Shown: in pieces, positions 9,594 to 47,560 of the stretch
Layout: every line of letters begins with the position of its first letter
How positions within the stretch are numbered: position 1 is the first letter of the stretch
Source: Lysobacter alkalisoli
GTDB lineage: Bacteria > Pseudomonadota > Gammaproteobacteria > Xanthomonadales > Xanthomonadaceae
Length of the DNA stretch: 64,000 bases
Direction of reading: 5' to 3'
Assembly (NCBI RefSeq): GCF_006547045.1
Contig: NZ_CP041242.1
Coordinates: 1,994,001 to 2,058,000 of the forward strand
The notes under the pieces: generated by a model
The model's database searches: none
Told to the model about the DNA's origin: nothing
The model's input: the letters and a program-made list of their open reading frames with translations, nothing else
Program-made: the position numbers and the translations under genes

Positions 9594-9597
9594 ATGC

Positions 9598-13085: not shown

Positions 13086-13556
13086 CTACGAATTACGCTC
13101 CACTCGGATCAGATCGCCGTAATGGCCAAACTTCGGCTTTGGGGAATAGTTAGCGGCCACATCAGCACTCGATGTTGCTGTTTCGAGCTTATGTGGATTG
13201 AAAAACTCCCGCCTTGTCGCGACCACTCCATCTCGGCCAAAGATGTACGAAGTACCGCTAATAACCCTATCCGTATCGCCTTCGAATTCTCGATACGTCG
13301 CCATCGTCAGAAAAAGCTTCCCTGGCTCAACTTCCTGAAAGTCATATGACAAGGATTCGCGAAGATGCTCGTCAAGGAAGCTGACGCCAACCGCCTTTTC
13401 GGCCACCTCCAAAAAGCAATACGGGTGCTCGATAGCGCCAACGAGAACCGTATAAGGCAATCCCTTCTCATGCGCAGCCTTGGCCTGATCCTCAGACCAC
13501 ATCTCCGTAGGGCTCTTCTTGGCACGAAACCACGACTTACAGAAAAATACGTCCAT
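13086..13556 (-). CDS. Probable immunity protein for Rhs tip D
   Basis: A 156-residue protein without signal peptide or membrane segment, so it should act in the cytoplasm. The ATG at 13556 shares one base with the stop of the rhs D tip (TGATG), the tight coupling typical of toxin-immunity pairs. Features include an N-terminal KSWFRAKKSPTEMWSEDQAK and a tail with REFFNPHKLETATSSADVAA. Base use is more AT-rich than the Rhs core, as is usual for tip/immunity cassettes. I do not recognise the family by name; the immunity call rests on position, size and overlap. A TTG one codon upstream could also start it. Confidence 0.7.
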   Translation of the reverse strand: MDVFFCKSWFRAKKSPTEMWSEDQAKAAHEKGLPYTVLVGAIEHPYCFLEVAEKAVGVSFLDEHLRESLSYDFQEVEPGKLFLTMATYREFEGDTDRVISGTSYIFGRDGVVATRREFFNPHKLETATSSADVAANYSPKPKFGHYGDLIRVERNS

Positions 13557-16500
13557 CAATAAATCCTACCGTTAACGTCACGAATCAGAACACCAGCGCG
13601 ATTTGCACCATCCAGGACAGATGGCGGAATTGGCCGCACTTGCACCGGCACTTCAAGAATGTATTGACCGCGCAAAATCTGCCCCGACAACTGACCACTA
13701 GAGGGAACATTTGCGATCACCCCACCAACGGGGTACTTGGCAGGAATTTCATTAATATACCCCAGCGCGGTTTGCGGCTGGATGTCAGCGAACTGAGTGA
13801 ACTTACGCGAGACGATTTCACCAGCAGCCGGGCTGTAAGAGTCTAGCCGGTAGTAACCAGCTCCCCCGGGCTTGTTGATATAGACCTCGTTATACGGATA
13901 CGCCACTGCACGCTCTGCATTGAACGCATTGCCAGCATCAAGGCGCTGTAGCCACTGCGGCCGGCTACTGACTCTTTCGACGCTGTTTGGAACTATACCT
14001 CCCTCCAAAGGCTGCCTCGGCCTGACCCGCACAGAGGCAGGACGCAACGCGCTGCCGCCGCGCCCCAAGGTCGCCAAATCACCCGCCGCCATCGCGAGTT
14101 CCGGCGGCGCGCCTGCGTCAACCAACGCACCACTTAGCGCGCTAGCCCTGTACGCGTCGACCTTCGCAACGGTCTGTTGCCATTCAATCTCCCGCCGAGC
14201 AGCCGCCGCCGAGTCATAAGCCATCATCCGCGGCATGGGCTTGCCCGTGCGCGCAATAGACTCTAGATCGGCCTTGTACTCTGCGTCCGAGTACCGCACG
14301 CCAAGACGCTCACCGATGGGCAACTGCCAGTGTTGCGGACCGGTCCGGCGCGCATCCGCCTGTAGTTGCGCCGTGAAGTTCTGCACGCTTGTACTGGCGG
14401 TGTATCGCGCAGGTGGGCTGCTCCACTGAACGGCATCGATCCGCCGGCGCTGCACATCGACCCATTGCTGCCTGCTTTGGTTCCAGCCGTAGAAGTACCA
14501 GCCGTCAGGCGAGTACCCGTCCGCTACCGCAGTCACCCTGACTTCGTTGCGTATGCCCGCATCGTCGTATGTACCGGGCACGTGCAGGCCGATATCCGTA
14601 TTGGAGCCCGATATCGGCATATTCATCGGCCCGATGGCATTGCTGCGCGGCGCATCGAAGCTGACCGACACAGTGTTGCTGTAGCCCTCATTGACGCCGC
14701 CCATGGCCGCTGTTCCAGCCCCGGCACGGCTGGCCAGCCATTGCTCGGTACCGTGTCCAAGTTCACGTCCCAGCGCATTGCCGAATGCGTCGGCAAACAC
14801 TGTCGCGTAATCCGACGTGTGCAAGGTTTGCCCGGACGACGAACGCAAAGCCAAACTGACCATGCCCCCGGTCGTCCCGTAGGTGAAGCGGTTGGCAAAG
14901 TCGGTCTTCAAGTCCAGCTTGCCGGCGATCATCGGTGCAATCTTGGCCGCGCCCAAGCTGCTCACCGCACTGGCGGCGATGCTGTTCCAGCTGAAGCTGA
15001 CGTCCATGCCGGCCAACTTCTGGCCGGCATAGTTGGCGCCGGCATTGGCCACGGCCAGGGCCGCGGCCTTGCCCCATTGCGGCGCACCGGACAGGGCGCC
15101 GCCTACCGTCCCGAACTGGGCGACCAGACCACCCGTGATCGCGCCGGTGATACCGCCGGCTGCCACCCCGCGCCAGCTGAAGCTGGTCACGCCCATGGCA
15201 CTGCCAACGGCACTGCTGGCGGCAGCCCCTGCCGCACCTGCAATAGCGCCAACGACCGCCGCCTGACCCACTGAGAGTGCGGAGGCCGCTACACCATACA
15301 TAGCACCGGCCGCTGCGCCTGCCGTGAACACGGTGACCGCCACTGCCACAACCACGATCAGGATCATCGCCACCGCATTGCAGCTGTTCTTCGGCGGCGG
15401 CGTGATGTACGGCAAGCCCGGCGCGGTGTTGCCGATCGCCTCGCTGGGGTTGTACGGCTTGAACGTGTTCGCGTCGTTGCTGCTGACCCGGGTGCTCGGG
15501 GCGTTGAGCTGGGTGCCCGCGGTCAGCGGGGTGTCCGGGTCGCCCAGGCCGTTGGCGTCGGCCAGCACGTACCACAGCTGCGGGGTGCCGTAGACGCGCT
15601 GCGCCAGGCCGCGCAACGTCTCCCCCGCCAGCACCGTCACCTTGCCGCCGCCGGCCTCGTAACGGCCGCTGCCGCCCAGGCCCTGCAGCTGCGTCTGATC
15701 GCCGCGGCTGCCGTAGCGGGTGCGGATCTGGCCGCCCTCCTTCAACTCCGCATGCTGCTGGCCACCGGCATGCACGAACAGGTAGTTCGGCTTCGGGTTG
15801 TTCGGCTGGTTCGGGTCGTCCTGGCGGAACACCCCGTCCTCGATCCGGCCCTCGCGCCGCCGCTGCACCTGGCCGTCGCCGGTGTACGCGTAGTAGCGCA
15901 TCCGGTCGTCGACGTTGTCGTAGTTGGTCTTCTCGAGCTGGCTCAGCAGCCGGCCCATGCCGTCGTAGGTCAGCGTGTTGGTCGTGGTCTTGTAGTCGGG
16001 GTTGCTGCTGCTGCCGGTGACCGTGCGCTCCTGGTAGCTGCCCCAGCCCTGCCAGGTGCTGGTGTAGGTGTGCGTCGCCCAGCCGATGTCATGGCCCCGG
16101 TAGCGGTAGCTCTGCAGCCGCCCCAGCGTGTCGTAGCCGCTGCTGCCGTCGGCCTTGGTGTACAGCACCTCGCTGCGCAGCTGCAGCACCCCCAGGTCGG
16201 TACGCTGGTTGCCCGACGGCCCCTCCAGCGGCGTGCCGAACGCCTGCCACCAGTCGCCGTCCGGGCGGCCCCGGGTCGTCTGCTTCACCACCCGCCCGTC
16301 GCCATCGAAGCTGAACTGCTCCGCGCCACTGAGCCAGCCGCCGATCTGCAGGTCCCAGTAGATCTCCTCGGCGCCCTCCCGGTAACTCACCTGCCGGGTC
16401 GCGTCGCTGGCGAAGTAGCCGCGTGTCTCCACCAGCCGGCCCGCCACGTCGTAGGTGTACGCCTTCGATACGCCCCGGCCGCTGCCGCCCAGCTGCTCGC

Positions 16501-16624
16501 GGTGGAACTCCAGCACCTTCTGCCCGCGCAGGTCGTACGCGCTGCGGTACACGTAGCCGACGCCGTCGTGGTAGCGGAACCGCGAGACCTCACGGCCGGC
16601 GGCGTCGTAGTGCAGCTCGTACGA
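13556..16624 (-). pseudogene. Displaced 5'-truncated Rhs C-terminal cassette D (intact toxin tip)
   Basis: The frame is open from the junction at 16624 to the stop at 13556 (about 1,020 codons) but has no start of its own; it begins inside the second YD block at YELHYDAAGREVSRFRYHDG. In order it holds YD repeats, a LysM-like domain (VTVLAGETLRGLAQRVYGTP), a PPPK linker, a membrane segment (AVAMILIVVVAVAVTVFTAG), Gly/Ala-rich sequence and the tip. The last 130 residues carry YPYNEVYINKPGGAGYYRLD, then GEIVSRKFTQFADIQPQTAL and a ILEVPVQVRPIPP end. The Asp plus Glu-x-x-x-Arg-Lys arrangement recalls PD-(D/E)xK nucleases, but that is uncertain. It is probably a silent donor module for rhs A. Confidence 0.75.
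15381..16624 (-). repeat. Rhs core repeat, copy D (1,244 bp)
   Basis: Aligned without gaps to 28,049-29,292 and 33,241-34,484, and to 20,178-21,420 with one base missing there. It is the most diverged copy, with several amino-acid changes (for example LQLRSEV, GRVVKQT, SQLEKTN). Confidence 0.9.
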
Positions 16625-16781
16625 TTCAGACGCGGCGGCCCGGAGAACCCGACTTGCCCTGCCCTTTACGGGCCATCAGAAGAAATCAATCCGGGAGCGT
16701 GCGGGATGGTTTAGGGGCCGCGCGCTAAACCTTCGTCCTGCGGCGCAGGATCAACCCCGGAAGCACAATCCGAGTTCCCCA

Positions 16782-17660
16782 GTGCATTCCCTGGCATTCC
16801 TGCTGCTGTTCCTCTACGTCTGGCTGTGCCGCCTTGCCGACGAGTGGCCTGCGCGGCATCGCGTCCATCGCCCGTTCCGGCGCCATCCGACACCCGTTGC
16901 CCTCAGTCCGGGCAACGCCCCTCGGGCCGTTGCCGGCAAGAAGCCCGCATGGGCGACGACCGCCCTGATCCGGCTGGCTGCGCGCACACCCAAGGCGCTC
17001 GCCAGTTGCCGCCGCCTGAGCGGTCGATTCAATCGCCGCTTCGCCTCGCGTGGCGTCACCGTCAGCCACGATTGGGTCTGGAAGCAGCTGAAACAGCATG
17101 CGCCGGCCATCGCCCGGCAACGCCGACGATGGCGAGCGTGCGGGCCGCGACCACTGCCCGTCAACGACACCTGGGCAGCCGACCTGACCGGTCTCACCGA
17201 CGCAACCGGAGAGACCCACCTCGTCTTCGGCCTGCTCGACCACGGCAGTCGCGCCCTGCTCTCGCTGCGGTGCCTCCGGCGGAAAACATCGATTACGATC
17301 CTGCGGGCGCTGCTCGATGCCTGTGAACGCCACGGCATTCCCCGCGCACTGCGTACCGACAACGAAGCCATGTTCACCAGCGCCCTGTTCCGGTTCGCGC
17401 TGCGCTGGCTCGGCATCCGCCATCAGCGTAGCGCCCCGGGCTGTCCGTGGCAGAACGGGCGCATCGAGCGGTTCTTCGGCACCCTCAAGCGTGAGCTTGA
17501 AATACTGGTGCCACCCTCGTTGGGCACGCTACCGGCCCGATTGAGTCTGTTCGCCAGCTACTACAACGCCCGCCGCCCACATATGGCACTGAACGACCGC
17601 ACTCCGGCGCAGGCCTGGCAGGCGGGCGGCGGGACACGTCATCGGGCCGATTCGGGATAG
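16782..17660 (+). CDS. DDE (rve-type) integrase/transposase, copy 1
   Basis: A 292-residue protein with a complete catalytic triad: Asp134 (TWAADLTG), Asp193 (RTDNEAMF) and Glu229 (NGRIERFFGT), with 35 residues between the last two, as in retroviral-type integrase cores. An N-terminal helix-turn-helix-like region (CRRLSGRFNRRFASRGVTVS) precedes it, and the end carries YYNARRPHMALNDRTPAQAW. There is no separate orfA. It is identical to the copy at 29,450 and related to the remnant at 12,011. It is transcribed against the flanking Rhs modules. Whether it moves the cassettes or itself is not known. Confidence 0.85.
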   Translation: MHSLAFLLLFLYVWLCRLADEWPARHRVHRPFRRHPTPVALSPGNAPRAVAGKKPAWATTALIRLAARTPKALASCRRLSGRFNRRFASRGVTVSHDWVWKQLKQHAPAIARQRRRWRACGPRPLPVNDTWAADLTGLTDATGETHLVFGLLDHGSRALLSLRCLRRKTSITILRALLDACERHGIPRALRTDNEAMFTSALFRFALRWLGIRHQRSAPGCPWQNGRIERFFGTLKRELEILVPPSLGTLPARLSLFASYYNARRPHMALNDRTPAQAWQAGGGTRHRADSG

Positions 17661-17766
17661 CGCCAGTTCCGGTGGTATCGGCGAGCCCACCGCGCAGTCG
17701 AAGCGACAACCCAGAGCACGGACATCGCGGTGTCTGCGAGGAACCGTGCCCGCACGCTGCCGAACG

Positions 17767-17909
17767 CGCCCGAAAACAGGGCCGCAGGCCCCAACACCCC
17801 GCCGTTCGCAACCGAAATCGGCCGCGAACGGCCATAATTCCGGGCTACGGCCGGCAAAAAATACCGGCCGCAGGGAAGGATCGGGGTCAACCTGACAGCT
17901 GACAGGACA
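17767..17909 (-). repeat. Module-end repeat R2 (143 bp)
   Basis: It directly abuts the stop codon of immunity C (17910). Minus-strand order: TGTCCTGTCAGCTGTCAGG, a CGGCCGG stem around a T run, a GGCCG-TTCG-CGGCC tetraloop hairpin, and a GGGGCC-TGC-GGCCC stem followed by TGTTTTC. Three stable hairpins suggest termination or mRNA 3'-end protection for the module. Confidence 0.9.
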
Positions 17910-18191
17910 TCAACCATTGTCAGTGCATATAAGTCGCCAGTTACCAGACTGCGCCTCCTCCTCTGTCAACATGACATTCTCAACAGTGGCAAGTGCACGC
18001 AGATCGTTGGTCGATATTTTCTTTACGATCTGCTCACCCTCCAAGCTAATGCGCTGCCTAACGCCTTCTTCGGAGATAAGTTCACAGTCACACGCCTTTA
18101 TTAGCTGGGGGTGATTGGCTACTAGGCCACCAAGAACCGTGCGCCCGTTGGACAAGCGAAATACATTCAGAATCTTCATCTCAAATTTCAT
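17910..18191 (-). CDS. Probable immunity protein for Rhs tip C
   Basis: A 93-residue protein beginning 11 bases after the stop of the rhs C tip. The sequence looks like a small beta-rich fold (NVFRLSNGRTVLGGLVANHP, IKACDCELISEEGVRQRISL) with a polar tail (EEEAQSGNWRLICTDNG). It has no signal peptide. The family is not recognised. Position, size and the repeat that abuts its stop support an immunity role. A second in-frame ATG lies four codons in (MKILNVF). Confidence 0.65.
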   Translation of the reverse strand: MKFEMKILNVFRLSNGRTVLGGLVANHPQLIKACDCELISEEGVRQRISLEGEQIVKKISTNDLRALATVENVMLTEEEAQSGNWRLICTDNG

Positions 18192-20177
18192 TTGATATCC
18201 CTTTATAGACCAGCATCTCGGAGCTGCTTAAGGATCACAACGTCCTCGCTGCTTAATCCAAGCATCGACTGGTGGCGAATCATGAAATCTTTGACATGAG
18301 TCTCGGCACTGCCGAAACCGCTCGTTCCGAGACGATCAACGACTCCAATTCTGGCCTGGGTGCCATGCAAAAACTCCTCGAGAACCGCTGCCTTACTAGG
18401 ATTCTCGCGAAGCAAGATGTGGGTAAAGGACTTGCCACCAACATTAGCCTCCGCCTGCATCCAATCCAAATAGGCCATGTCACTCGACCCCGGCTTGGCA
18501 AAGACTACCTGGCGACGACTGCTCACATTCGCAATTAGCTCCGGGGATGCCTTTTCAATGCCCCAGCCCAAACTGGAGCTGTTCATGGAGCTAGCTGGCA
18601 ATCTGTCTGCAACACTCCGAGCATAAGCCGTCGACACACTACGATCCACGCCCCCTGCCCGTCCAAGTCGGCTGGTGCCTGCCGCAAGTCCGGCCAGTGC
18701 CGTCACGCCCGCCTGCTTCTTCTCCAGTGGCGTCATGCCATTCCAGGCATCCACAGCCTGCGCCACGGTATCTGACGGCCTCTGCGATAGCACGGTGCCC
18801 ACGGCGTCGAGCGTGGAAGCCAGCCGGTCTGTGTTGGTGAACAGCCGTCCCAGCCCAATGCCCCCCTGCACGATGTCGGCCACAGTGCGGTTCGCCGCAC
18901 CCAGGGCCGCGTAGCCGCCAGCACCAGCGGCCGAACTTGCATAGTCACCGGCATGGGTGGACAGGTCGGTGTTGAAGTCGCCCCAACCCTGCACCTTCTG
19001 CTCGATGAAGCCCAACTTGCCATCTGCCCAGGCACGGACCTTCATCACCGGGGCGGCCATGCGCTCAAGCGCGCCGTTGATGGCGTTGTACCGGGCCAGG
19101 TATGGGTTGGTGCTTGGTCCTGACGTCCGGTTCAGGCTCCCCGCTGGGTAACTGCCCGCGATCCATTGCTGGTGGGCCGGGGCCAAGCGCTGGTGGCTGT
19201 CGCTCCAATAGCGCACCTGGTCGGCCCGGTTTCCGCTGGTCGGTGGGCCCGGCTGCCGGTAACGCCGCGACCACGACCACATATCCATGTACCACTGGTT
19301 CTGGGCCCGGTCGGCGGTGACTACGACCGAATGCAGGGTGGGCACATTCGGATCGTAGGTCTCCGCCAGGATCGGTCCGATCGCGTTGCTGCGGCGGCGG
19401 TCGGCAGCGGCCGTTCCGCCCGTTGCCGGGCCGTTCCCCGTGACCACCGGATCGGGGCCGAAGTCGCCACTGGCATACGCCGTGGACACGCCGCCATTGA
19501 CGCCGCCCATGGCTGCTGTGCCGGCCCCGGCACGACTGGCCAGCCATCGATCAGTGTCGCGTCCAATTGCATTTCCAAGCGCATTGCTGAACCCATCCAT
19601 GACCACGGTGCCGTAATCCGACCGGTGCAGTGTCTGCCCGAACGACGAACGCACTGCCGCGCTGACCATGCCGCCGGTCATGCCGTAGGCGAAGTCGTTG
19701 GCAAAGTCAGTCTTCAAGTCCAGCTTGCCGGCGACCATCGGTGCAATCTTGGCCGCGCCCAAGCTGCTCACCGCACTGGCGGCGATGCTGTTCCAGCTGA
19801 AGCTGACGTCCATGCCGGCCAACTTCTGGCCGGCATAGTTGGCGCCGGCATTGGCCACGGCCAGGGCCGCGGCCTTGCCCCATTGCGGCGCACCGGACAG
19901 GGCGCCGCCTACCGTCCCGAACTGGGAAGCCAGACCGCCCGTGATCGCGCCAGTAATACCGCCGGCTGCCACACCCTGCCAGCTGAAGCTGGTCACGCCC
20001 GTGGCACTGCCGACCGCGCTGCTGGCAGCAGCTCCTGCAGCCCCCGCCGTCGCACCCGCCGCAATCGCCGTTCCGGTCGCACCAAAGTACGCCCCAAAGT
20101 AGCCGGTCGCGGCACCGTAGGTCACGACAGACACCACAATGGCCACCACAACCATCAGCACCATCGCCACCGCATTG

Positions 20178-21420
20178 CAGCTGTTCTTCGGCGGCGGCGT
20201 GATGTACGGCAAGCCCGGCGCGGTGTTGCCGATCGCCTCGCTGGGGTTGTACGGCTTGAACGTGTTCGCGTCGTTGCTGCTGACCCGGGTGCTGGGGCGT
20301 TGAGCTGGGTGCCCGCGGTCAGCGGGGTGTCCGGGTCGCCCAGGCCGTTGGCGTCGGCCAGCACGTACCACAGCTGCGGGGTGCCGTAGACGCGCTGCGC
20401 CAGGCCGCGCAACGTCTCCCCCGCCAGCACCGTCACCTTGCCGCCGCCGGCCTCGTAACGGCCGCTGCCGCCCAGGCCCTGCAGCTGCGTCTGATCGCCG
20501 CGGCTGCCGTAGCGGGTGCGGATCTGCCCGCCCTCCTTCAGCTCCGCATGCTGCTGGCCACCGGCATGCACGAACAGGTAGTTCGGCTTCGGGTTGTTCG
20601 GCTGGTTCGGGTCGTCCTGGCGGAACACCCCGTCCTCGATCCGGCCCTCGCGCCGCCGCTGCACCTGGCCGTCGCCGGTGTACGCGTAGTAGCGCATCCG
20701 GTCGTCGACGTTGTCGTCGTTGGTCTTCTCGCGCTGGCTCAGCAGCCGGCCCATGCCGTCGTAGCTGAGCGTGTTGGTCGTGGTCTTGTAGTCGGGGTTG
20801 CTGCTGCTGCCGGTGACCGTGCGCTCCTGGTAGCTGCCCCAGCCCTGCCAGGTGCTGGTGTAGGTGTGCGTCGCCCAGCCGATGTCATGGCCCCGGTAGC
20901 GGTAGCTCTGCAGCCGCCCCAGCGTGTCGTAGCCGCTGCTGCCGTCGGCCTTGGTGTACAGCACCTCGCTGCGCAGATCCAGCACCCCCAGGTCGGTACG
21001 CTGGTTGCCCGACGGGCCCTCCAGCGGCGTGCCGAACGCCTGCCACCAGTCGCCGTCCGGGCGGCCCCGGGTCGTCTGGCTCACCAACCGCCCGTCGCCA
21101 TCGAAGCTGAACTGCTCCGCGCCACTGAGCCAGCCGCCGATCTGCAGGTCCCAGTAGATCTCCTCGGCGCCCTCCCGGTAACTCACCCGCCGGGTCGCGT
21201 CGCTGGCGAAGTAGCCGCGCGTCTCCACCAGCCGGCCCGCCACGTCGTAGGTGTACGCCTTCGATACGCCCCGGCCGCTGCCGCCCAGCTGCTCGCGGTG
21301 GAACTCCAGCACCTTCTGCCCGCGCAGGTCGTACGCGCTGCGGTACACGTAGCCGACGCCGTCGTGGTAGCGGAACCGCGAGACCTCACGGCCGGCGGCG
21401 TCGTAGTGCAGCTCGTACGA
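20178..21420 (-). repeat. Rhs core repeat, copy C (1,243 bp)
   Basis: The same core as the copies at 15,381, 28,049 and 33,241 but one base shorter, because of the missing G at 20,294-20,297. This is direct evidence that the frame break is a one-base deletion. Confidence 0.92.
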
Positions 21421-24400
21421 CTCCAGCGACCCCGGGTCGTTCACCGCCGGCGTCTTGACCACGATCCGGCCGTTGACCAGCGCGCCGTTGTGGATCCGGA
21501 TCCGGTTCTCCGCGTCGTAGCTGAACCACTGCTCCACCGTCTGGTACGGCGTGGATCCGCTCAGCGGCGCCTGCATCGGCTCCATCGCCGGTGCCGACAG
21601 CTCATCCTCGCCCTCCGGTGCCAGCGCCGCCCCCATCTGGAACGACTGCACCGACTGCGTCGACCACGGATCCACGTCGTCCCGCCACACCGTCAGCTTG
21701 AACTCGTCGTACACGCTCAGACCCGACGGGTCCTTCGCCGTCACCCGCACCGTGTACACCTGCTCCCCGGTGCTCCACGGCTGGCCGTGCAGACGACGCC
21801 CGTCGATCTGCAACCATGACGGCTGACCGCTCAGGGTGTAGGTCAGCGGGTTGTTGTCCGGGTCGGTAAAGGTATCGGCCGGGAAGGTGTAGTCGAAGTA
21901 CATGCTCGTCGTCGCGAACTGGTCCGGCAGCGGCCGGTTCACCACCGGCGGCCGGTTCGGCGGCGGCGCCGACACCACGCTGATGGTGAACGTCTTCGGC
22001 GTCACCCCGCCGCGTTTGTCGTCGGCGGTGATCTTGACGTTGCTGTAGGTACCGGTCGTGGTCGGCGTGCCGCTGATCACCCGCGTGGTGACGTTGAACG
22101 ACAGCCCCGGCGGCAGCCCCGTCGCCGTGTATGTCAACGGGTCGTTGTTGGCGTCGGTGAATGCCGGCACCGTGTAGCTGAAGGGCTGCCCCTTGGTCGC
22201 GGTCTGGTTCGGGATCGTCGGCGCCGACGGCGCGGTGTTGGCCTGCACCGTCAGGGTGAAGCTCTTGATGGTCTTCCCACCGTTGCCGTCATCGGCGGTG
22301 ATCTTGACCGTGAACGTCCCCGACGCGGTCGGCGTGCCGCTGATCCTGCGGCTGGTCCCACCGGGGTGTGACAGCCCCGCCGGCAGGCCGGTCACGGTAT
22401 AGGTCAGGGTGTCGCCGTTGGCATCGGTAAAGGCCGGGAAGTCATAGCTCCACGCCAGCCCCGACTTGATGCTCTTGTTGGGCAGGCTCGGGGCCACCGG
22501 CGCCGCGTTGACGGCGAGAGTGAACGCGCCCTGCGCCGACGCGTTGCTCGGATCCTTGGCCACGATCCGCAGGCTGTAGCCGTACGCCACCCCATCCGGC
22601 ATCGGGTACGGATAGTCATCCGCCGTCTGCCGCCACGACAGCGTGCCGGCCGTCCCGCTGATGGTCCCGTTGGAGGCGATGCTCAGGCCCACCCGGGAGG
22701 CGTTGACCCACTGCGCCGGCACCAGCCGCAGCTCCGGTTCGCCGTTCACGTACCGGTAGTGCTCGTAGTACTCCGGGACCAGCACCTGCAGGCTGTACGA
22801 CAGCGGGTCGCTGTTGGGGTCGGTGAAGGCCCCCGACGGCAGCGCCCAGGACACCGATTGCCCGATCTGGGCGGTGCGGTTGGGCAGGCTGCCGGCCGTG
22901 TATTTGGGTGGATCGTTGACCACGCTGATCGTGAAGGTGGTGCTGCGCGTGGCCCCGTGCTCGTCCTCCACCGTCACCGTCACCGTCTTGCTGCCCAGCG
23001 CGGTCGCCTTGCCGCTGAACTTGCGCGTCGCCGGGTCGAAGGTGATCCCCGTCGGCATCCCCGAGGCCGACCAGGTCAACGTGTCGCCGTTGACGTCGGT
23101 AAAGGTGTTGGCCGGCACCGTGAACGACCAGTTCACGTTGCGGCTGACGTCCCTGTTTGCGATCGGATTGGACACCACCGGCGCCACGTTCGGGGTGCTG
23201 ACCACGAACGACCTGTTGGCCGTGGCCGTGCCGTCGCTGGCCGTCACGGTGACCGTCCAGCTGCCCACCGGGCCTGGCGTGCCGCTGAGCTTGCGGGTGG
23301 TTTGGTTAAAACTCATCCATGAGGGAAGCGCAGCCTCATTGACCTGGTACGTCAATTCATCGCCGTTGGGATCGGTGAACGCCGGAATCGTATAGCTCCA
23401 CGACGTGCCCGCGGCCGCCGTCTGGTTCGGGATCGTGGGCGCCACCGGCGCCTTGTTGGACACCCGCAGGGTGAAGGTCGCCTCGACACTGCCCCCGCGA
23501 CCGTCGCTGGCCTTGACCTTGACGGTGTAATCGCCCAGCGCCACGCCCGTGCTGCCGGTGATCTTTCCACTGCCGCTCAACGACAGCCCGCTGGGCAGGC
23601 CGCTGACCACGCTGTAGGTCAACGTGTCCTTGTTCACGTCGTTGAAATACGGCGCCAGGTCCAGGTTGGCCGCGATGTTGCGGCTGACCGTCTGCACCGG
23701 GATGGTGGCGACCGTCGGCGGCGTATTGGTCACGTTGAACGTGAAGGTGCCCGTGGCCGGCAGGCCCTGCGGATCGGAGGCGATGATCCGGGCACTGAAG
23801 CTGGTCTGGATGAGATTGGAAGGCGTGCCGCTGATCCGGCCCGTGCTGGAATTGATGCTCAGGCCGATGCTCGACAGGCTGACCCAGTTGCCTCCGACCA
23901 GGACCTGCGCGGCATAGGTCAGATCATCGCCATTGGGCTCGGTGAACGCGCCCGCCGGCAGGGCGAAATCGACCGCCGTGCCATGCTTGATGGTGCGGTT
24001 GGGCAGGCTGCCGTCGTTGTAGACAGGGGGCGCATTGACGAAGGTGTTCAGGTGCAGGGTGATGTCGCCGTCGGTGCCGACACCCGCCGCCCCGATCTTG
24101 TACTCGTCCGCCGCACTGACCCGGTCGCGCGAGTCCACGCCCTTGATGCGGATGACGATCTTGCCGGGCGAAAGCTCCGACGGCACGGTCCCGCTGAAGG
24201 TGCGGTTGCCATCGAAATGGAGCCAGGCCGGAAGCGGAAGATAGTTCACCGAGTCGGGGATCGGAACATCGTCGTCGTCCCTGCTGATCATCTCCACCAG
24301 CGATGGCTGCAGGTGGACCTGGTCCTCATCCGGATCGGTGAACAGGTTGGCCGGCACGGTGAAACTGAAGCTGCGCCCGATGTCCAGGGAACGGTCCGCC

Positions 24401-25860: not shown

Positions 25861-25867
25861 CACATTT

Positions 25868-30719: not shown

Positions 30720-30726
30720 GTGCCGG

Positions 30727-36900: not shown

Positions 36901-39900
36901 CGGCCCGTGCTGGAATTGATGCTCAGGCCGATGCTCGACAGGCTGACCCAGTTGCCTCCGACCAGGACCTGCGCGGCATAGGTCAGATCATCGCCATTGG
37001 GCTCGGTGAACGCGCCCGCCGGCAGGGCGAAATCGACCGCCGTGCCATGCTTGATGGTGCGGTTGGGCAGGCTGCCGTCGTTGTAGACGGGGGGCGCATT
37101 GACGAAGGTGTTCAGGTGCAGGGTGATGTCGCCGTCGGTGCCGACACCCGCCGCCCCGATGTTGTACTCGTCCGCCGCACTGACACGGTCGCGCGAGTCC
37201 ACGCCCTTGATGCGGATGACGATCTTGCCGGGCGAAAGCTCCGACGGCACGGTCCCGCTGAAGGTGCGGTTGCCATCGAAATGGAGCCAGGCCGGAAGCG
37301 GAAGATAGTTCACCGAGTCGGGGATCGGAACATCGTCGTCGTCCCTGCTGATCATCTCCACCAGCGATGGCTGCAGGTGGACCTGGTCCTCATCCGGATC
37401 GGTGAACAGGTTGGCCGGCACGGTGAAACTGAAGCTGCGCCCGATGTCCAGGGAACGGTCCGCCAGGTTCACGCTCGTGTTGCGTACGGGCGGGTTGTCG
37501 GTGCCGATGCTGATCGAGACGTTGGCGGTCGCGCCCAGGCCCTCGGCGTCGCTGCCGCGGAGCTGGAAGCTCAGATTGCCGGCTTGCGCATTGCTGGTCG
37601 GCCGGCCATGCAGACGGATCGTGCCTGCGTCCTGGTCGACGCTGATGTTCAACCACTGCGGCAGCGTCGAGCCCGTCGGCCAGATCGGTTCGATGAAGAC
37701 CTGGTCGCCTTCCGGGTCGTTGAACAACGTGCCGACCGGAACGGTGACATCGTAGTGGTCGTTGACGCGAGTCGGCGGGGCGGTCCAGTTCGTCGCCACC
37801 GGCGCCCGGTTCTGACGCACGGTGACCGACAGCGTGATCGTGGCCGACAACCCGTCCGGATCGGTGGCCGTGAAGGTGATCGTGTAGGCCGTGCCGTTGG
37901 CCACGGTAACCGGGACGTGCCCGGCCAGCTTCATCTGCGGTGTGGCCTGGTCGTCCAGGTACTGGAACGACAGCCAGGCCGGCTGCCCGCTGGCGGTCAC
38001 CTGCAGGCGATCGCCATCGTTGTCCTTGAATATCTGGGACAGGTTGCGCGTCCAATCGAAGTCACGGCCGCGGATCGCTTCCTGGGCAATCAGCGACGAG
38101 ACGACCTTCTGCGGCGCGGCATTGGGGGCCGTGGTGACCTGGAAGGTCTTTTCGACATAGGCCCCCTTCTCATCGGTGGCCCGCAACTTGAAGGAGAACG
38201 TGTCCGATGTCGTCGGCGTGCCCGTCAGGCGCACCACGGACGGATTGCCTGCATCGACCTGCAGCCAGGCCGGCAGGGCTGCGGCGTTGACGATGCTCAG
38301 GGTCAGGCGATCGCCGACGTCCAGATCGCGGAAGTAGTCCGTGACGACCAGTTCCTGGCTCCACATCTGGCCTGTCTTGGCGCGCAATTGCGCCGTGCCG
38401 GATTCCACCAGGACCGGTGCCGTGTTGGTCCGCACCTTGACCTTGAAAGTCGTGGACGCCGTATTGGCGGCATTGGCCGTCTCATGCGCGGTGAGTTTGA
38501 CCGTGATGTCCTGGTCGGACGCACCCGAAGGCGGGTCGGCGATGAACACGATCTCACCGGTGGTGCTGTCGTGCAGGGCCCGCAGCCAGGTCGGCAGGGC
38601 GCTGCCATTGGCCTGCGACACCAGCAGCGTCAGGGGGTCCTGCTGGGCGTCCCGGAACACGTCGCTGAACAGGATCCGGAACTCGGACTTGACCCCCTTG
38701 CGGACCACCCGGTCCTCGGGCGTGGAGATGCTGACCGGCGCGGTGTTCTCGACCGGCACGGCCGCCACGTCCGGGCCGAAACCGGAGCGGGCCACCACGC
38801 GGCGGCGGTTACCGACCGCGTCGTATTCGTAGACCATGTCGAAGACCCGCTTGGCGCTGCCGGCCGACAGGTCGTCCTGGGTGACGCGCTCGACCCGGTT
38901 GTGGCTGTCGTAGAGGGTGCGGGTGATGGTGCGGGTCTGTTGCCCACTACCATCCGTGAAGATGACGTCCTCCACGGTGCGATTGCCGGCGGCGTCGTAT
39001 TCGTAGCGGAATTTGTTGCCATTGCCCTCAACGACTTCCTTGATCCGGCCGTTGGCGTAGTAGCTGATGGACTTGCTGGCCGCCGCGGGCATGGCGAGAC
39101 CGGAACCGCCCGCCGATGACTCCGCGGTCAGTTGCCCGGTCAATGCGTTGTAGGTGTAGTCGTAGTCGCGTCCGCTCAGGTTGTTGTGGTCGACGACGCG
39201 GCCGTGGATGTCGTAGTCCCAGGTCAGTTCGTTGACGCGGACGGTCTCACCGTCGCGATCGGTGAGCGTGGACGAGCCGGAAAACGCATTGCTCTCCCGG
39301 ATCTTGTTGCCGGCCACGTCGTGGGCAAAGTCGAGCACCACGCCCATCGTTGTCTGGCTGCGCAGCAACAGGCTGCGGCTGTCGTAGTCGTACCGGGCAA
39401 TGTAGCCCAGCGCATCCTCGACCCTCAGGCGATCGCCGTTCTGGTTCAAGGTGTACTGCTGGAGCAGTGTCTTGCCCCTCACCGCTCCGCTGGCATCGGG
39501 CAGGTAGTCGCCGATCGCGACGACCCGGTTCAGGCGATCGTATTCCTTGAACGTCAGGTACCCCATGGGGTCCTGGGCCATGCGCTGGTTGCCGAGGACG
39601 TCGTAGGCATGGCGGGTGGCATTGCCAAGCGCGTCCGTCGACTTCACCAGTTGGCCAGCGTTGTCGTACTCATTGGTACGGACGTTTCCATTGGCATCCC
39701 GCGTCGCCACCAGGCGCCCCAGGGCGTCGTAGTACCACTGGTTGACCGGATGCACCCAGGTGGACGCGCCGGACTCGGAGACGACCTTCACCAGCGGGCG
39801 CTCATCGCGCACGATCTGGTTGTAGTCGTTGTACTGGTAACGGGTCTGGTAACCGCGACCGTCGATGATCTCGATGGCGTTGCCCCAGCGATCCAGTCGC

Positions 39901-42900
39901 TGGGTCACCACGACGGGATCATTGGCCGCGTTGTAGGCCGGCATCCGCGTGATCACGGCACGTCCCAGCCGATCCGTGGTGTTCCAGGTCACCGCGTCCA
40001 CGACCTGGGACTGACCGAGGTAGGCCTTGCTCGATTGGCGCACCTGGTGCCCGGCCAGGTTGTAGCCCAGGGTACGGGTGGCACCGCCCTCGTTGGAGGT
40101 CAGCAGGCGTCCGGCCGCATCGTATGCGTAGTCCAGCGAGCCGCCGAGTCCTGTCTGGGTCTTGCGCGTGATCTCGCCAAAGGCATTGTATTCAACGGCT
40201 TCGGACAGGTCCGCACTTCCCGTGCCGCCCGACACGGGTGTCCGGGTCTGGACATTGCCGACCTGCCGTCCGGTCTTGTCGTAGCTGTAGCGTCCATGGA
40301 CGATCGTGTCGCGGCTCGTGGCGCTGCCTTCGAGCTGATACCAGACATGCACCAGGTTGTCGGCCGCATCGTAGGCCGAATAGACGAAATTGCCTTCGGC
40401 ATCCTTGGACATGACCGCGCGCCCCTGGCGATCGTAACGGGTGACCTGGATCTGGTCGCGCGCGGTATCGGCCACTGGAGCGCTTTGGCCCGCCTTGAGA
40501 CCGTTGGCATAGCGCCTGATCTGCACGACATTCCCGAAAGCGTCATAAGCCATCGCGGTGTACGGCGATACCTGCTGGTACAGTCCTGCCGTCGACAGGT
40601 CGTTGGCCGTCGATGCCTTCAGGCTGTTCTCCGCCGACGCCGTCAGCACGGCGCGCTCGGGCTCCTGCACGCTGATCGCGCGGCCCAGTGCGTCATACCG
40701 CGTGATGGTGGCGCCGGCATCGGTGGTCAGGCGGGTGACGCGACCCTCGCCGTCGTAGGCAAATGCCGTCTCGACACCGCGCACGCCGGCACTGCCGTCG
40801 GCACGCTGGTACCGCCTGACCGCAACCTCGCTGACCTTGCGGCCGAGCGCGTCGTACTCCCAGCGCATGATGCGGTCGTAGCCGGTGACGGCATCGCCCG
40901 GCGGCGGCGCGCTGGGCTGGGTGTCGACCGCCAACCCGTCCGTGTCGAGTGCCCGCGCATGCTCGATGGTCTCGACCACCTCCCCCGTTGCGTTGTACCG
41001 CGTGGCGGTCGCATATCCCTCCGCATCGACGGTGAGCACGTTGCGGCTCAAGGCGTCGTAGTAATGGAAGGTATCCGCCCAGCGGGCGCTGGACTGGCCC
41101 GCCGTACCTTCGAGCAGGACCGATTCCTTGACCACCTCGCCAAAGGCGCTGTAGGTGAACCGGGTGGTCGGTGTGCCGGTGAGCTTGCTGCCTGCGGCGT
41201 TGTAGTAGCTGACCTGCGACTGGACCACCTGGGCCTTGTTGCCGCGCGCGTCATAGCTCGTCGACAGGATCCTGTCGGACGTGGACGTGGTCAGTACGCC
41301 GCTCGTCTGCAGATGCGACAAGGTGAGGGCCTGGCCCGCGGACCAGCCACTCAGGGCGCCGGTATCGATCCGGGTGGCATGGCGCCGCAGGGTGACCTGT
41401 TCACCCAGCGCGTTGTAGCCGTATCCGGTGACATACCCCTCCTGGTCGACCTCGTAGGCAACCCGGCCGAGCTGGTCATGGACCTTGTAGCTGTAGTGGC
41501 CGCGCACGTCCTTCTGGACCACCGCCTGGCCCAAGGTGTTGTAGGTCACCTGGATGGTGGGCGCCTGGCCGGTGGCTTCGAGCTCGCCCGTCGTTTCATT
41601 GACTTTCCAGGCGTCCGGGAAGGTCGTGCGGATCTGGTGGCCCCGGTTGTCGTAGGCGTACTGGGTCGTGCGGGCCTCGGCGGTTCCCGCGTTCTCGGTT
41701 CGCGAAACGACATTGCCGAGTGCGTCGTACCCGATTTCGGTGGTCAGGCGACGCGACACCGTGGCCACATTGCCGGCGGCATTGACGGTGGCAACGCTGG
41801 CCTGCGGGCTGATTTCCCGGGTCTTGCGGCCGGCCGCGTCGTACTCGTAGTTCCAGACGTGGCCGTTGCGGTCGGTATACGCCACGACCTGGCCCGTACC
41901 GTCGTACGTATATTTTTCGACCTGGTCGAGGGCATCCGTACGCTGCTTCAGCCGGCCGGCGGCATCGTAGGTGAAACGGGTGCTGCGAACGGCTTCAGCC
42001 GGCTGTGCCTGCGACCAGGCGGCCATGCCGGCCTCGGTGGGCGTCCCGGCGGGCTTGGGCGCGCTATGGGCAATGGTCTCCACCACCCGTCCGGAAGCGT
42101 CGTAGCGCGACTCGGTTACCGCATTGGATGCACCGATTTCGAATCGCAAGCGCCCGGCCGTGTCGTAGACATAGCGCGTGCGGCGCATGACAGCATCGTC
42201 CCCGCTGGGGGGCAACAGGGCTGCCAGATCGCCAATGGTGTGCGTGGGATCGAAGGCCACCTCGACCCCGAAGCGGCGATCGGCCACCACCAGGCCGCCG
42301 GCGTCATAGACCCGCTCGCTGACCACGCCCTTGTCGGCGCTGCTGCGCTCGACCCGGTAGCGCTCGCGCCCGATCGTGTCATAGACAATGTATTGCGCAC
42401 GCGCGGCACTGGCCTGCGGCGCCACCCGCGAAGCCAGGGTTGTGGCCTGGAACGTCCCCGCCGCCAGCGCTGCACGATCGGCAGCGCTCAGGCTCAGGGC
42501 CGTGGCATAGGCCCAGCTCTGTGTGGCCCGGCCCGCCAGGTCGTAGCGCTGTTCAAGCACCGCGCCATCTGCCTCGACCGTGAAGCGGACCCGGCCGACG
42601 GCATCGAGCACGACGTAACTGGTACGATCCCTGGCATTGTCGACAGTGAGAGCAGACGCCACGCTAGCGGGCGTTGCCGTACCGCCTTGCAGGGCTGAAC
42701 GCAGACTGGTCAGCGACACCGCATTGGCATAGCGCCGCGTGCTGACCTGGCGGCCGGCCGCATCGTAGCCGACTTCGGTCACCGCACCCGCACCGTCGAT
42801 CGACAGCTTCAGGCGGCCATCGGCATCATGGACGCGATACGACTGGATATCCTTGCCATGCTGGGTCGTCACGCGCCCCTGGATATCCGAGATCGTCGCT

Positions 42901-45900
42901 GCCAGCCCCAGTCCATCCAGATTGATGGCCTGGGCGTAACCTCGGGTTGCCACCACCCGCCCTTCGACGTCGTACCAGGTGCGGACCACGCCGCCGGCGC
43001 CGTCTACCCGGAATACCTCGCGATTGGCCTCGTCGTAACTGAAACGCGTGACCCGGCCCTCGGCATCGGTACGGCTGACGAGGTTGTCATTGCCGTCATA
43101 GGTGTAGGTCGTGGTCAGATTGAGCTTGCCCGCGCCCGGGTCGACGGTCTCGTTGGTCCGGCGCCCCAGCGCGTCATAGGCGTAGGCCAGCTTCGTCGCC
43201 GCGGCCGTGCCTGCGCCCTCGGTCACCGTCAGTTGGCGTCCCTGGGCATCCCAGGTGTAGACCGTCTTCAGCGCCAGGCCGGCCGCATCGCGCACCGTCT
43301 CGCGGAGCTGCCCCTTTCGGTCGTATCCAAAGGTCGTGCGAATGCCCGCGGAGTCGGTGACCGACACCTGCCGGCCCTGCCCGTCGTAGGCATAGGTCGT
43401 GGCCCGGTTGAGTCCGGCCGGATCCTCGATGCGCTTGAGCAGACGCCCCGTCGCGTCGTACCGGTAATCGACGCGACGTCCCGTTGCATCCACCGTACTG
43501 GCAAGCAAGCCCCGTACGTCATATTCGCTGACGCTCGTACCGCCATCGGCCGCCCGCGCTTCCAGGAGGTGGCCGTCCCTGTCGTACCGGTACTCGGTCG
43601 CATGCCCCAGGGCATCGACCACCTTCGATGTTTCCCCATGCCGGTTGCGGTGGGTGGTCAGCGTGACGCCTTCCGGCGTGGTGATCGCCATGCTCCGGGC
43701 TGCATCGTCATACGCATAGGTCGTAATCCGGCCGAGCGCATCGGTCTGGGTCAGCACGCGCCCAAACGCGTCATAGCCGATCGACTGTCCTTGCGTCCGG
43801 CCAGACACAACCTGGCTTTCGGTGACCTGCCGTCCAAGCCGGTCATATCCGAATGTCACCGTGTGTCCGCGTCCGTCGGTCGCGGAGGTCACACGCCCGA
43901 AGGCGTCATACGCCCAGCCCACGGTGCGACTCAAGCCACCTTGATCATCAACCTGGGCCGTGCGCAGGCCACGCCGATCGTATGCAAATCCGGTCGAAAC
44001 ACCACGGGCAACGTCGATCTGCTCGATGAGGTCGCCGAAAGCACTGTAGCGCCACTCCGTACGGTAGTTTTCGGCGTCAATACGCGCCTTCACCAGGCCG
44101 CGGCGGTCATAGGCCAGCGTCGTGCGGCTGTCCGTCGCGGCGACATACTGCAGTACCGACACTGCCGCACCCGCGCTGTCCCGGCTGCCCGGCACCCCGA
44201 TCGTGATCCGCCCGGTATAGGCGATCGCTTCGCGAACCTCACCGAACGCTGTGTAGCGCGTCTCGGTCACCTCGCCTTCGGCATTGGCCACACCCTGTGC
44301 GTTGGCCACGCCCCGCACCGTGAACGTCAACCGCCCTACGGCGTCATAGAAGTACCAGGTCTTGTTGCCCTGAGCATCGACGCTTTCGATACGCTGTCCG
44401 CGCGCATCGTAGCTGTGGCGCATGCCGTACTGGGCATACACTGCATCCAGCTGCGCCTCGCTCATCCCGCTCAACAGGTGGGTCGCACCTTCGCCCCCCA
44501 GCTCACCGATCAGGTTGCCGAACACGTCATAGCGCAGGCGGCCTTCGCGCACTTCGCTGGTGCCCTGTGCGGCCTCGCTCCTCAGCAGCCGCCCCTGCAC
44601 GTCGTAGCTGTAGCGGGTAACCGTGCCTTCCGGATTGACTTCGATCAGCAGGTTGCCAAGCGCATCGAAGCTGCGACGGGTCTCGCGCACCGCTCCGGCC
44701 TGGACCTGCGTTCGCAGCGCCGCCAGGCTTTCGTTGCCGGCCAGCCCGGTCAGTTGCCGCGCATAGGCGCGGACTGCCCGCTCGTTGCGGGCCTCGTCGA
44801 ACACATACTCGGTCAGGTAGCCTTCGGCGTTCAGCTCGGCCACCCGGTTGCCACGACCGTCGTGGAAGATCCGGGTCACCTGGTCGTTGGCATGGCCGAC
44901 CGGCCGCAGGTTGGCCAGGGTACCGGAGGCGCGCAGGCTCTGGCTGGTGGCCGTCGCATAGGCCACCGTCCGCACCACGCGGCCCGCCCGGTCATGGCTG
45001 TACTCGACCAGGTAACCTTCCGCGTCCAGGCGCGCGACCTCGCGCCCCGCGGCATCGTGGAAGTAACGCGTCACCCGAGCCGATGCCGCCGTGCCGGCGG
45101 CATCGGTCATACGCGTCTGTACCAGGCGTCCGGCACCGTCGTAGCTGTAGGTCGTAATCCCGCCTTCGGCGTCGACCGCGGTCAGCAACCGCCCCTGCGC
45201 GTCATAGGTAGCGGTGTTCCTGCGGTCATCCGCGTGCGTGGCCGGCTTGACTGCCTGGATGTCCGTCGGAACAACCTGTCCGCCAGCCAGCCAGCTGCTG
45301 GTATCCACCCGCGTTGCGTGGCCGGTCGTGGTCACTACCCGTCCCAGCCCATCGCGGCTGTAGACGGTGACCGCACCGGTCGCGTCGACTTCGCCGACCA
45401 GCCGCTCTTCCGCATCGTAGAAGTAGTACGTGCGCGCCCCGCTCGCATCTTCCCGGGCCCGCAGCCGACCGCCGTCGTCGTAGTAGCTCCGCGTGGTATG
45501 CGTCGTCGTCCCACCCGTCAGCGCCGACTCGATGGTCGACACCACCTGTCCTGCCGCATTGCGCACCTGCAACCGGAGCAGGTCGTTGCCACTGCCGTCG
45601 CCGGCCACGCCGCCCTCCACTGTCGCCGACACGGTCATCGCCGAGTCGACATAGCTCCAGACCGTCGTGCGCAACGTCGTTACCGGACCGGATCCGACCT
45701 GCTCGGTCACCACTTCCGACAACAGCCGCCCCATCCCGTCATAGGCATAGGCCGTGGTCTGGGCGGTATCGCGACCGTCATCCACCGTCGCCGTGGAGCT
45801 GCGTCGCTCGACTTGCTGGCGCAGCAATCCCTGGGCGTCGTAGACGTAGTCGGTGATCGAGGCGGCATCCTCCTCGATCCCGTTACCCGAGGTATCGACC

Positions 45901-47560
45901 CGGGCGTAGGCCACGGTCCGCGACAGCCGACCCTGCAGGTCGTACATGTTCTGCACCAGCGTGCTGCTGGCGCGCTGGGCGGGTGTCGCCCACGCCTCCA
46001 GCGCCGACAGCGTCGTACTGCCGCTGTAGCCCGCACCCAGGTACTGACGACTCTGCGCTATCTGCCCGATCCCGGATCCACTGCCGGCATACGACAGCTC
46101 GCGCACATCGCCGGTCGCACCGATCGCGAAGCGCAAGCGGTCCTGGGCATCGTAGACATAGCGCGTGGTCTGTCCGCCGGTCGGAGCCTGGGCGCTGTTC
46201 GCCCCATCCGGATCCAGACCGGTAAAGACCGTCTCGGAGGCCAACTGGTGGGTCGAGGTATAGGTCCGCTGTACCGCGCGGGCCGCACCGCCCTGCGACG
46301 GATCAACCACCTCCCACTGCCACAGCACATTGCCGTGAGCATCGTACTGGTAGTCGGTCCGGGCCAGCGTGGTCGAGCCCCGCGTCGTCTCGACCCGGGT
46401 CACGTTGCCGTCGGCGTCGTAGGTGTAGCTTGTCTTCGCCCTCAGGCCACCGGCCCCTGCCGGCAGATCGATATTGACCAGACGGCCATCGCCATCGCTG
46501 TCATAGGTCCAGGTCCGACCGCTGGAGTCGATCACGTTGGCGCGATGGTTTCCCGGATCGTAGGTAAAGCTCAGGGTCTGGCCGACACCGTCGCTGTCGT
46601 CGGCATTGCTGTCGCCCCGCGTCAGCGTGGCAATCCGGCCCTCGCTATCGTAGGTGTAGCTGATCAGGGTACCGTCGCTCTGGCGGACCTGAGTGATCCG
46701 CAGGCTGGTCGCATCGGCGTAGGTGTAGTCGGTCCGGAACAGGTAGCCGTCATTGTTGGCCGCCACGCTGGCGTCCCAGCTGTCGCGGTCGCCCGGCCTA
46801 TCTTCCGGGGTCAGGTCGGTGATCACCGATGCCAGACGGCCGACACTGTCGTACCCGTAACTCACCTGACCACGAACGACGCCCGATTCGCGCGTGGACA
46901 CCGTCGACAGCCGGCCGCTACCGTCGTAGCCGAATACCAGCGCATCGCCCGTCGCCGTGCCGTCCTCGGCCCGCACCTCCGATACCCGGCCATTGCCGTC
47001 GTACTGCACCGACCAGGTCACCGGCGCGGTCCCGTCGGACTTCATGTCACGGATCCGGGTCAGCCGCCCCAGCAGGATGGCGTCTGCATGATCTTCATAA
47101 ATCTCGACGCGACGGGTACTGCCCTCCTGGTAGGACCACGCTCGATTGCTGCCGTCCCAGGTCAGCGTGTCATGGGCGCCCTCGCCTGCCGTGGATCGGT
47201 ACAGGTTCGGAGCAACGTACTCGAAGTCCTGCGTGGAGCCGTCGCCCAAGTGGCGCCGGATCACGCTGCCAGCTTCGTTCAGAGCCCCGGACAGCAGCTC
47301 CACCCGACGCTCGAATCCGGTCATCCATGCGTCCTGGCCGACCTGGTCGATCCGTCCCTGGCTGTTGTAGGTCCGGACCTGGCCGATGGCCATGCCCCGG
47401 AACAACAGTTGCTCATCCTGCGCCTGCAGGATCAGGTTGCCGGTGGCAAGGTTCACGTACTGGCGGTCTGCCCCTGGCCAACCCGGCCATCGCCCAGCGG
47501 CCCCTGGGCCCAACGCCCATCGAACAGACCCAGTCCATTTCCCGTAAACACTGCTGACAT
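30981..47560 (-). CDS. Giant Rhs/YD-repeat polymorphic toxin with Ig-like stalk (rhs A)
   Basis: About 5,526 residues. Start ATG 47560 (MSAVFTGNGLGLFDG) has GGAG seven bases upstream; one base is missing in the C4 run at 47,471-47,474, after which the frame is QYVNLATGNLILQAQDEQLL onward. Order by approximate residue: YD block 1 (60-2,940), 13 Ig/cadherin-like domains (2,945-4,275), YD block 2 (4,310-4,680), LysM-like domain (4,690-4,745), membrane segment (around 4,785), Gly/Ala-rich linker, VDRGVSTAYARSVA motif, toxin tip (last 115). The tip has SSHTHPGFEIGVLRSSPGD, a JAMM-metallopeptidase-like HxH...SxxD pattern. No PAAR domain, signal peptide or typical Rhs DPxGL motif is seen. It probably kills rival cells; the export route is unknown. 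Confidence 0.88.
33241..34484 (-). repeat. Rhs core repeat, copy A (1,244 bp, in the intact gene)
   Basis: It encodes YD block 2 and the LysM-like domain of rhs A. It is the acceptor copy against which the donor copies at 15,381, 20,178 and 28,049 could recombine to replace everything downstream (linker, tip, immunity gene). Confidence 0.92.

What the first reader, a model, noticed from the sequence alone, without database searches (positions are those of the whole stretch)
13086..47560. Rhs toxin-immunity array: one expressed gene plus three displaced tip/immunity cassettes
Rhs A (30,981-47,560) is the only complete gene. Downstream, in the same orientation, cassettes B (25,166-29,292), C (17,910-24,448) and D (13,086-16,624) each lack a start but keep core, linker, a distinct tip and a distinct small downstream gene. 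The four tips and four immunity genes are unrelated to each other. Displaced Rhs/CDI ends are known, but three donors with 1.2 to 4.3 kb of homology each, in one array, make a well-developed tip-switching locus.
Basis: partly seen in the sequence, partly recalled or inferred. Interest (0 to 1): 0.85.

Follow-up and report, generated by a model that had tools for sequence, protein, structure and literature searches.

The report
Toxin-tip array beside stripped-down flagellum
A bacterium carries one giant contact-toxin gene followed by three spare toxin tips with their likely antidotes, and the locus sits beside a flagellum-like export machine without a tail that recurs next to such giant toxins in related bacteria and may be what delivers them.

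Summary
Gene A and three displaced 3' ends (B, C, D) share 1.28-4.32 kb of core at 97.4-99.4% identity. Tips and small downstream genes are mutually unrelated. Arrays of this kind are in print.

(2) A 1,485-bp tract identical in B and D, beside 1.6%-diverged core, shows recent recombination. (3) Directly downstream is a flagellar-type export cluster with rod, rings and hook; the genome has no flagellin and one FlhA. In 15 of 28 core-positive genomes the same cluster adjoins giant-Rhs DNA, in three layouts; its FlhA forms one clade.

Most novel reading: this cluster exports the giant toxins. Unproven. No switched strain could be sought, and as assembled B, C and the N-terminal end of A carry frame breaks.

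The parts
30981..47573 (-). giant YD-repeat/Ig-like toxin gene A (5,530 aa): DUF6531, at least 30 YD repeats, at least 11 He_PIG domains, weak LysM, linker, tip
   Evidence: conserved N-end motif at ATG 47560 is in another frame
30981..31442 (-). tip domain A (reads as JAMM-like HxHP..SxxD; motif name recalled)
   Evidence: relative in Deinococcus gobiensis plasmid, 43% over 82%; single-sequence fold failed (pLDDT 38.9)
30727..30999 (-). likely immunity gene A
   Evidence: marginal likeness to the Deinococcus neighbour
30432..30722 (-). two tandem copies of repeat E (about 146 bp, hairpin-rich)
   Evidence: RNA fold z -5.2
29293..30577 (+). spacer S1 with convergent integrase gene (GTG 29450-30328, IS481-like, PF13683 2.4e-16)
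26821..29292 (-). cassette B: core and linker copy (99.35% to A)
25868..26350 (-). tip domain B
   Evidence: no relative found
25166..25867 (-). likely immunity gene B (open frame; first ATG 25759)
24449..25165 (.). unrelated junction DNA between B and C, without E or integrase
20132..24448 (-). cassette C: core copy (98.8% to A over 4,319 bp)
18203..18607 (-). tip domain C
   Evidence: relatives in three E. coli records, 56-58%, and in G218, 38%
17910..18191 (-). likely immunity gene C
   Evidence: 31% to the E. coli neighbour, E 4e-6, 0 of 1000 shuffles
16625..17909 (+). spacer S2, 100% identical to S1, with E (17764-17909) and the same integrase gene
14689..16624 (-). cassette D: core (97.4% to A) and C-type linker (93.1% to C)
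13556..13987 (-). tip domain D
   Evidence: relatives in Duffyella and Pantoea plasmids
13086..13559 (-). likely immunity gene D
   Evidence: 45% to both neighbours
12954..13053 (-). truncated copy of E after immunity gene D
11906..12718 (+). diverged integrase gene (49% to that of S) in flank F, itself an alignable homologue of S
10953..11330 (-). X125: small helical protein, beside the giant or the TPR gene in relatives
   Evidence: no family, no fold match
9598..10803 (-). TPR protein of the export cluster
534..9725 (-). FliQ, FliR, FlhB, FlhA, FlgF, FlgG, FlgA, FlgH, FlgI, FlgB-like, FlgC, FliE
   Evidence: Pfam; FlgB-like has no Pfam hit
1..523 (-). N-terminal part of FliF (frame-broken as assembled); the cluster goes on outside the window through FliF, FliH, FliI, FlgD, FlgE, FliN, FliO, FliP (L115)

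Best explanation
This is an Rhs-type polymorphic toxin locus. One giant gene (A) is expressed, and three displaced 3' ends, each with tip and immunity gene, trail behind it. They were left by successive replacements of the tip by recombination in the core (D oldest, B youngest, by divergence; inferred). The displaced immunity genes probably protect against siblings and relatives that use those tips. The core arms, and for A and C also the identical spacer behind the immunity gene, allow later exchange: one crossover would join a donor tip to A and delete what lies between; a two-sided exchange A<->C would swap tip plus immunity gene and lose nothing. Shown: anatomy, arms, constraint in the arms, a recent recombinant tract. 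Inferred: expression, toxicity, switching. The giant is most likely exported by the flagellar-type apparatus next door, which has export gate, ATPase, rod, rings and hook while the genome has no flagellin. Shown: conserved linkage, a single clade of FlhA, a common N-terminal motif of the giants. Inferred: that the giants are its substrate.
For: Array. Order of divergence A-B, A-C, A-D in the shared core: 8, 10 and 22 N+S differences. pN/pS 0.19-0.49, pooled 38 N to 37 S, binomial p 4e-6. Conflicting site patterns: sites 239, 495, 496, 989 against 653, 655 against 702 (first 140 of 185 variable columns shown). 1,485-bp B/D identity ending at 29092, then 16 differences in 1,000 bp. Spacer S 100% duplicated. 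Homologous arrays: of 10 loci compared, 4 have repeated core behind a full gene, with 2, 1, 1 and 1 displaced copies. Export cluster: gene content; no PF00669 in the own genome; one FlhA at E 1e-20; linkage in 15 of 28 core-positive genomes, in three layouts of 9, 3 and 3; linked FlhA one clade 100/98; N-terminal motif in 13 giants.
Against: Frame breaks in A, B, C and FliF as assembled. The pooled N/S counts share A, so A-specific changes count up to three times and p is too small. The arms may have been constrained while part of whole genes, or homogenised since. No strain comparison was possible. Three core-positive genomes (G282, G300, G308) carry a distant (49-51%) form of the cluster with no Rhs piece in the 58-60 kb searched around it. 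Many giants in linked genomes lie far from the cluster (G140 and G316: 3 of 4 each). Clusters without any giant were not looked for.
Confidence: 0.6

Rival explanations
1. Fossil record and immunity bank only: displaced ends are kept for their immunity genes and hardly ever rejoin the full gene.
For: Printed as one of two models for cdi orphans (PMC4927057, passages). B and C are frame-broken as assembled. Divergence from A rises with distance along the array.
Against: Arms are near-identical and constrained; a recent recombinant tract and conflicting site patterns show the arms still recombine.
Confidence: 0.35
2. The flagellar-type cluster and the giant gene are neighbours without a working link; the giants leave by another route.
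For: Linkage alone is not export. Unlinked giants are common, and G300, G308, G282 have the distant cluster without a nearby giant. Rhs/VgrG cargo in one enterobacterial flag-2 locus was noted before with only a suggested role in secretion (PMC6993521, passages). The locus collects mobile genes.
Against: Three different layouts in 15 genomes of several genera, a shared N-terminal motif on linked and unlinked giants, no PAAR domain in A, and six linked genomes that have flagellin also carry this second cluster.
Confidence: 0.4
3. A dedicated integrase system: the convergent IS481-like integrase and repeat E mobilise tip/immunity cassettes, like integron cassettes.
For: E stands 0-33 bp behind three of four immunity genes. 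The integrase follows the immunity genes A, C and D, an Rhs gene or orphan in G093 and G157 and an Rhs gene on a viral contig. Matches of 37-59% identity in 28 genomes lie only at Rhs loci.
Against: No terminal inverted repeats were found; B lacks both E and integrase; E is not found in the 394 other family genomes beyond one 31-bp match; relics in G093 and G157 are broken. Arrays in G211, G282 and G359 have no such integrase in the stretches fetched.
Confidence: 0.12
4. The whole locus is decaying.
For: At least five apparent frame breaks: A, B tip, B immunity head, C, FliF.
Against: A otherwise runs 5,530 codons open; D and the A and C tips and immunity genes are open; arms constrained. Several breaks lie in single-base runs, the typical place of sequencing errors.
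Confidence: 0.15

Closest known systems
rhs main/orphan locus of Salmonella Typhimurium LT2 (Koskiniemi 2014, PMC3967940; passages)
   Same: full gene, displaced toxin end with immunity gene downstream in the same orientation, no own start, homologous arm, proposed or detected recombination
   Different: there one orphan with 522 bp at 95%; here three with 1.28-4.32 kb at 97.4-99.4%, a duplicated spacer with integrase, a 5,530-aa gene and a flagellar-type cluster next door
cdiA-CT/cdiI orphan arrays (PMC4927057; passages)
   Different: two-partner secreted CdiA, no YD repeats; here an Rhs/Ig giant
Sequential displacement arrays of Vibrio cholerae T6SS (PMC5361080; passages)
   Same: newer pair in front, older pairs pushed back; authors discuss the integron parallel and find no evidence for an integrase
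   Different: mostly immunity genes kept; here whole tips with long core arms and an integrase gene behind three of four immunity genes
Retained flagellar type III apparatus of non-flagellated Lysobacter enzymogenes (PMC9927559, PMC7277350; passages)
   Same: flagellar export and hook genes without filament, junction and stator
   Different: those passages do not mention Rhs; PMC7277350 says the genes form no operon in OH11; here a contiguous cluster beside a giant toxin
Enterobacterial flag-2 locus (PMC6993521; passages)
   Same: second flagellar-type locus with toxin cargo, once VgrG, a 1,556-aa Rhs and Imm26
   Different: has flagellin and motor genes; Rhs cargo is occasional

Membership tests
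Rhs/YD-repeat polymorphic toxin | YD repeats in a large protein | tested here: met
   PF05593: 11 stretches in 44001-47573, 19 in 37512-44000
Rhs/YD-repeat polymorphic toxin | variable C-terminal tip followed by its own small immunity gene | tested here: met
   pair conserved for D, weakly for C, marginal for A, untestable for B
Rhs/YD-repeat polymorphic toxin | tips toxic and neutralised by the neighbour | not testable with these tools
   no assay
Displaced (orphan) tip array | start-less 3' ends with immunity genes behind a full gene, same strand, homologous to it | tested here: met
   mechanical ORFs of B, C, D begin at chance GTG codons
Displaced (orphan) tip array | recombinants that join an orphan tip to the full gene | not testable with these tools
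   one genome per species; no reads
T6SS PAAR-Rhs effector | N-terminal PAAR domain | tested here: not met
   first 1,191 aa: RHS_repeat, DUF4595, DUF6531 only; frame break near the start leaves about 35 codons uncertain
Flagellar-type export cluster | export gate, ATPase, rod, rings, hook genes together | tested here: met
   FlhA passes its NCBIfam cut-off (779.8 over 772.1), FlhB and FlgG fall short; FliO and FliG-like weak
Motility flagellum | flagellin in the genome | tested here: not met
   PF00669: no match in the own genome, 6 of 12 linked genomes have it
Flagellar secretion substrate | giant protein exported by this cluster | not testable with these tools
   linkage only
Integron-like cassette array | recombination site at every cassette end plus its recombinase | tested here: not met
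   E at A, C, D but not B; integrase is DDE type, below the IS481 cut-off (115.6 of 224)

The most novel reading that the evidence does not exclude
A dedicated flagellum-derived export machine without filament delivers giant YD-repeat/Ig polymorphic toxins between bacteria. Its substrates carry a common N-terminal motif, its TPR protein and X125 are the toxin's escorts, and non-flagellated Lysobacteraceae keep 'flagellar' genes for this purpose. [quoted passage not shown]
Probability: 0.5. Interest if true: 0.9.

Novelty: new variant of a known kind. Interest (0 to 1): 0.72.

Why it matters
If the link holds, it would give the retained flagellar genes of non-flagellated Lysobacteraceae a purpose (toxin delivery), add a flagellar-type route to those known for polymorphic toxins, and make both testable by one gene deletion. 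The array adds a large reserve of tips with two-sided homology for A and C, in which old and new tip-immunity pairs can be swapped without losing the old immunity gene, a gap in the single-crossover model of tip switching.

Tried and rejected
Tips by family library: none of the four tips has a Pfam or NCBIfam match at E 0.05, nor a solved relative below E 0.1. Structure of tip A from one sequence failed (pLDDT 38.9) and was not searched. X125 folds as helices (pLDDT 72.5) with no PDB match at E 0.001.

S as a plain insertion sequence: no terminal inverted repeats; best partial match to the E terminus is no better than shuffles (15 of 27, shuffle mean 14.9). E as a genome-wide or family-wide repeat: only at this locus in the own genome, and one 31-bp match elsewhere in the family. 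E as an integron attC: rejected by eye and because B lacks it.

Tips joined to full genes in relatives: not found; of 287 genomes each, A, B and D matched only the own genome, and C also G218 (38%). The first-look cap of the core search (4 candidates scored per genome) means copies per genome are lower bounds.

N-terminal motif: 5 of the 13 upstream stretches examined did not match the pattern (L180, L183, L186, L189, L192). Tree: the program warns that long branches meet, so the deep order is unsure.

Literature: ten searches. Searches looked for Rhs with flagellar export; in their listings and in the passages read I saw no description of this linkage, apart from the flag-2 cargo named above. 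PMC7688988 (FT3SS of L. enzymogenes) is not held, so its substrate list is unseen.
Full report
Where it is. The window is bases 1994001-2058000 of a single-contig genome of 3,857,091 bases. No name is given.

The array. Reading along the minus strand the order is: A (5,530 aa), A immunity, two tandem E repeats and spacer S1, core-tip-immunity B, a 717-bp unrelated junction, core-tip-immunity C, E and spacer S2, core-tip-immunity D, a truncated E, flank F. A and B share one linker type, C and D another. A carries DUF6531 at the N-end, 11 + 19 YD-repeat stretches and 8 + 3 He_PIG stretches. No tip or immunity gene has a Pfam or NCBIfam match (one spurious Dec-1 hit below its cut-off).

The pairs are real in part. 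Tip C has relatives in three E. coli records (56-58%) with a 31% similar next gene; tip D in Duffyella and Pantoea plasmids, with the next gene 45% similar; tip A in a Deinococcus plasmid (43%), where the next gene is only marginally similar; tip B nowhere that was searched.

Signs of recombination. The spacers S1 and S2 are 100% identical over 1,285 bp, and with the first 200 bp of core the tract is 1,485 bp without a difference, after which B and D differ at 16 of 1,000 sites. Among the four copies, sites group as AB/CD, AC/BD and AD/BC. Differences from A in the shared core rise B 8, C 10, D 22, which fits successive displacement with D oldest. pN/pS in the arms is 0.19-0.49; the pooled test is too strong, because all comparisons share A.

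What two-sided homology would do. In the Salmonella model a crossover between orphan and main gene deletes the main immunity gene unless the locus is first duplicated (PMC3967940, passages). A and C are flanked by core on one side and by S on the other, so a two-sided exchange would swap them intact. That is inference; B and D lack S behind their immunity genes.

The integrase. S encodes an IS481-like DDE integrase on the opposite strand, ending toward the immunity gene. F behind D encodes a 49% relative and aligns to S along its length (score 558 against a shuffle maximum of 214, 30 shuffles). In 28 core-positive genomes searched with it, 11 match at E 1e-8; matches of 37-59% identity lie only at Rhs loci (own, G093, G157, the last two broken). 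Matches of 32% or less lie mostly elsewhere, one of them within 5 kb of a giant in G308 on the same strand. A viral-collection contig shows Rhs, small ORFs and a convergent 40% relative. On an Undibacterium plasmid a 40% relative lies between FliQ and a 38.8-kb tandem-95 gene.

The export cluster. Downstream of D lie X125, a TPR gene, FliQ, FliR, FlhB, FlhA, FlgF, FlgG, FlgA, FlgH, FlgI, an FlgB-like gene, FlgC and FliE, and outside the window FliF (frame-broken), a FliG-like gene, FliH, FliI, FlgD, FlgE, FliN, FliO and FliP. Within the stretch examined no filament, junction or motor gene was seen; the genome has no flagellin and one FlhA.

Linkage. Of 28 core-positive genomes among 395, 15 have this cluster next to giant-Rhs DNA: nine with the giant (in G218 only a displaced end) before X125/TPR on the same strand (G000, G194, G209, G211, G218, G273, G299, G309, G359), three divergent from X125 (G094, G140, G316), three right behind FliP (G093, G106, G157). 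G173 has a distant form (48-50%) with an Rhs gene convergent some 5-8 kb away. G282, G300 and G308 have the distant form without Rhs in the 58-60 kb searched. G025, G132, G148, G179, G204, G239, G262, G318 and G324 were not examined or lie on short contigs. All these genomes were chosen for having the core, so the reverse question (clusters without giants) is open. Of 12 linked genomes tested, 6 have flagellin and 6 do not. G273 and G299 have a second FlhA of 40% identity elsewhere. Thirteen linked FlhA form one clade (100/98) apart from these.

The giants' N-end. A motif of the form MSAVxxGxGLGLFNxSxxQLG...YVNxATGN stands at the start of 13 giants, linked and unlinked; 5 of 13 further upstream stretches did not match. 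X125 lies just before the giant in G194, G299 and G359 and before the TPR gene in most others. In G308 a lone TPR gene of this class stands beside a giant without the cluster.

Judgement. The array itself is a new member of a known kind. The duplicated spacer with integrase makes it a variant. The conserved neighbourhood with a filament-less flagellar export cluster is the part that a specialist would not expect; that it exports the giants is my inference, at about even odds.

Noticed in passing
own genome C1:287029-288624 (+): a second YD-repeat protein (2,171-aa open frame) far from this locus
   Followed up: no
L112 (Undibacterium sp. YM2 plasmid pUYM01): a 38.8-kb tandem-95 giant gene, a hypothetical gene, a 40% integrase and a FliQ-FliR-FlhB-FlhA-Flg cluster in the same order as in the window
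   Followed up: partly
L189 (G308:C1:4124500-4134000): a linked-class TPR gene (52%) divergent beside a giant, with no cluster genes in 20 kb on its far side
   Followed up: partly
L065 13924-19559 (G308): about 16 near-identical units of some 321 bp in tandem, downstream of a giant Rhs locus
   Followed up: no
L105 4617-9241 (G157 C36): behind a giant: immunity-like gene, a REP-associated-transposase-like frame (by eye), an orphan toxin-like gene with neighbour, then broken integrase pieces
   Followed up: no
L115 18702-19196: 165-aa FliG-like frame between FliF and FliH, barely recognised (PF01706 E 0.042): possibly a reduced C-ring
   Followed up: no
L111 (IMGVR_UViG_3300001920_000015): a serine-recombinase-like gene, the integrase and an Rhs gene together on a contig classed as viral
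   Followed up: no
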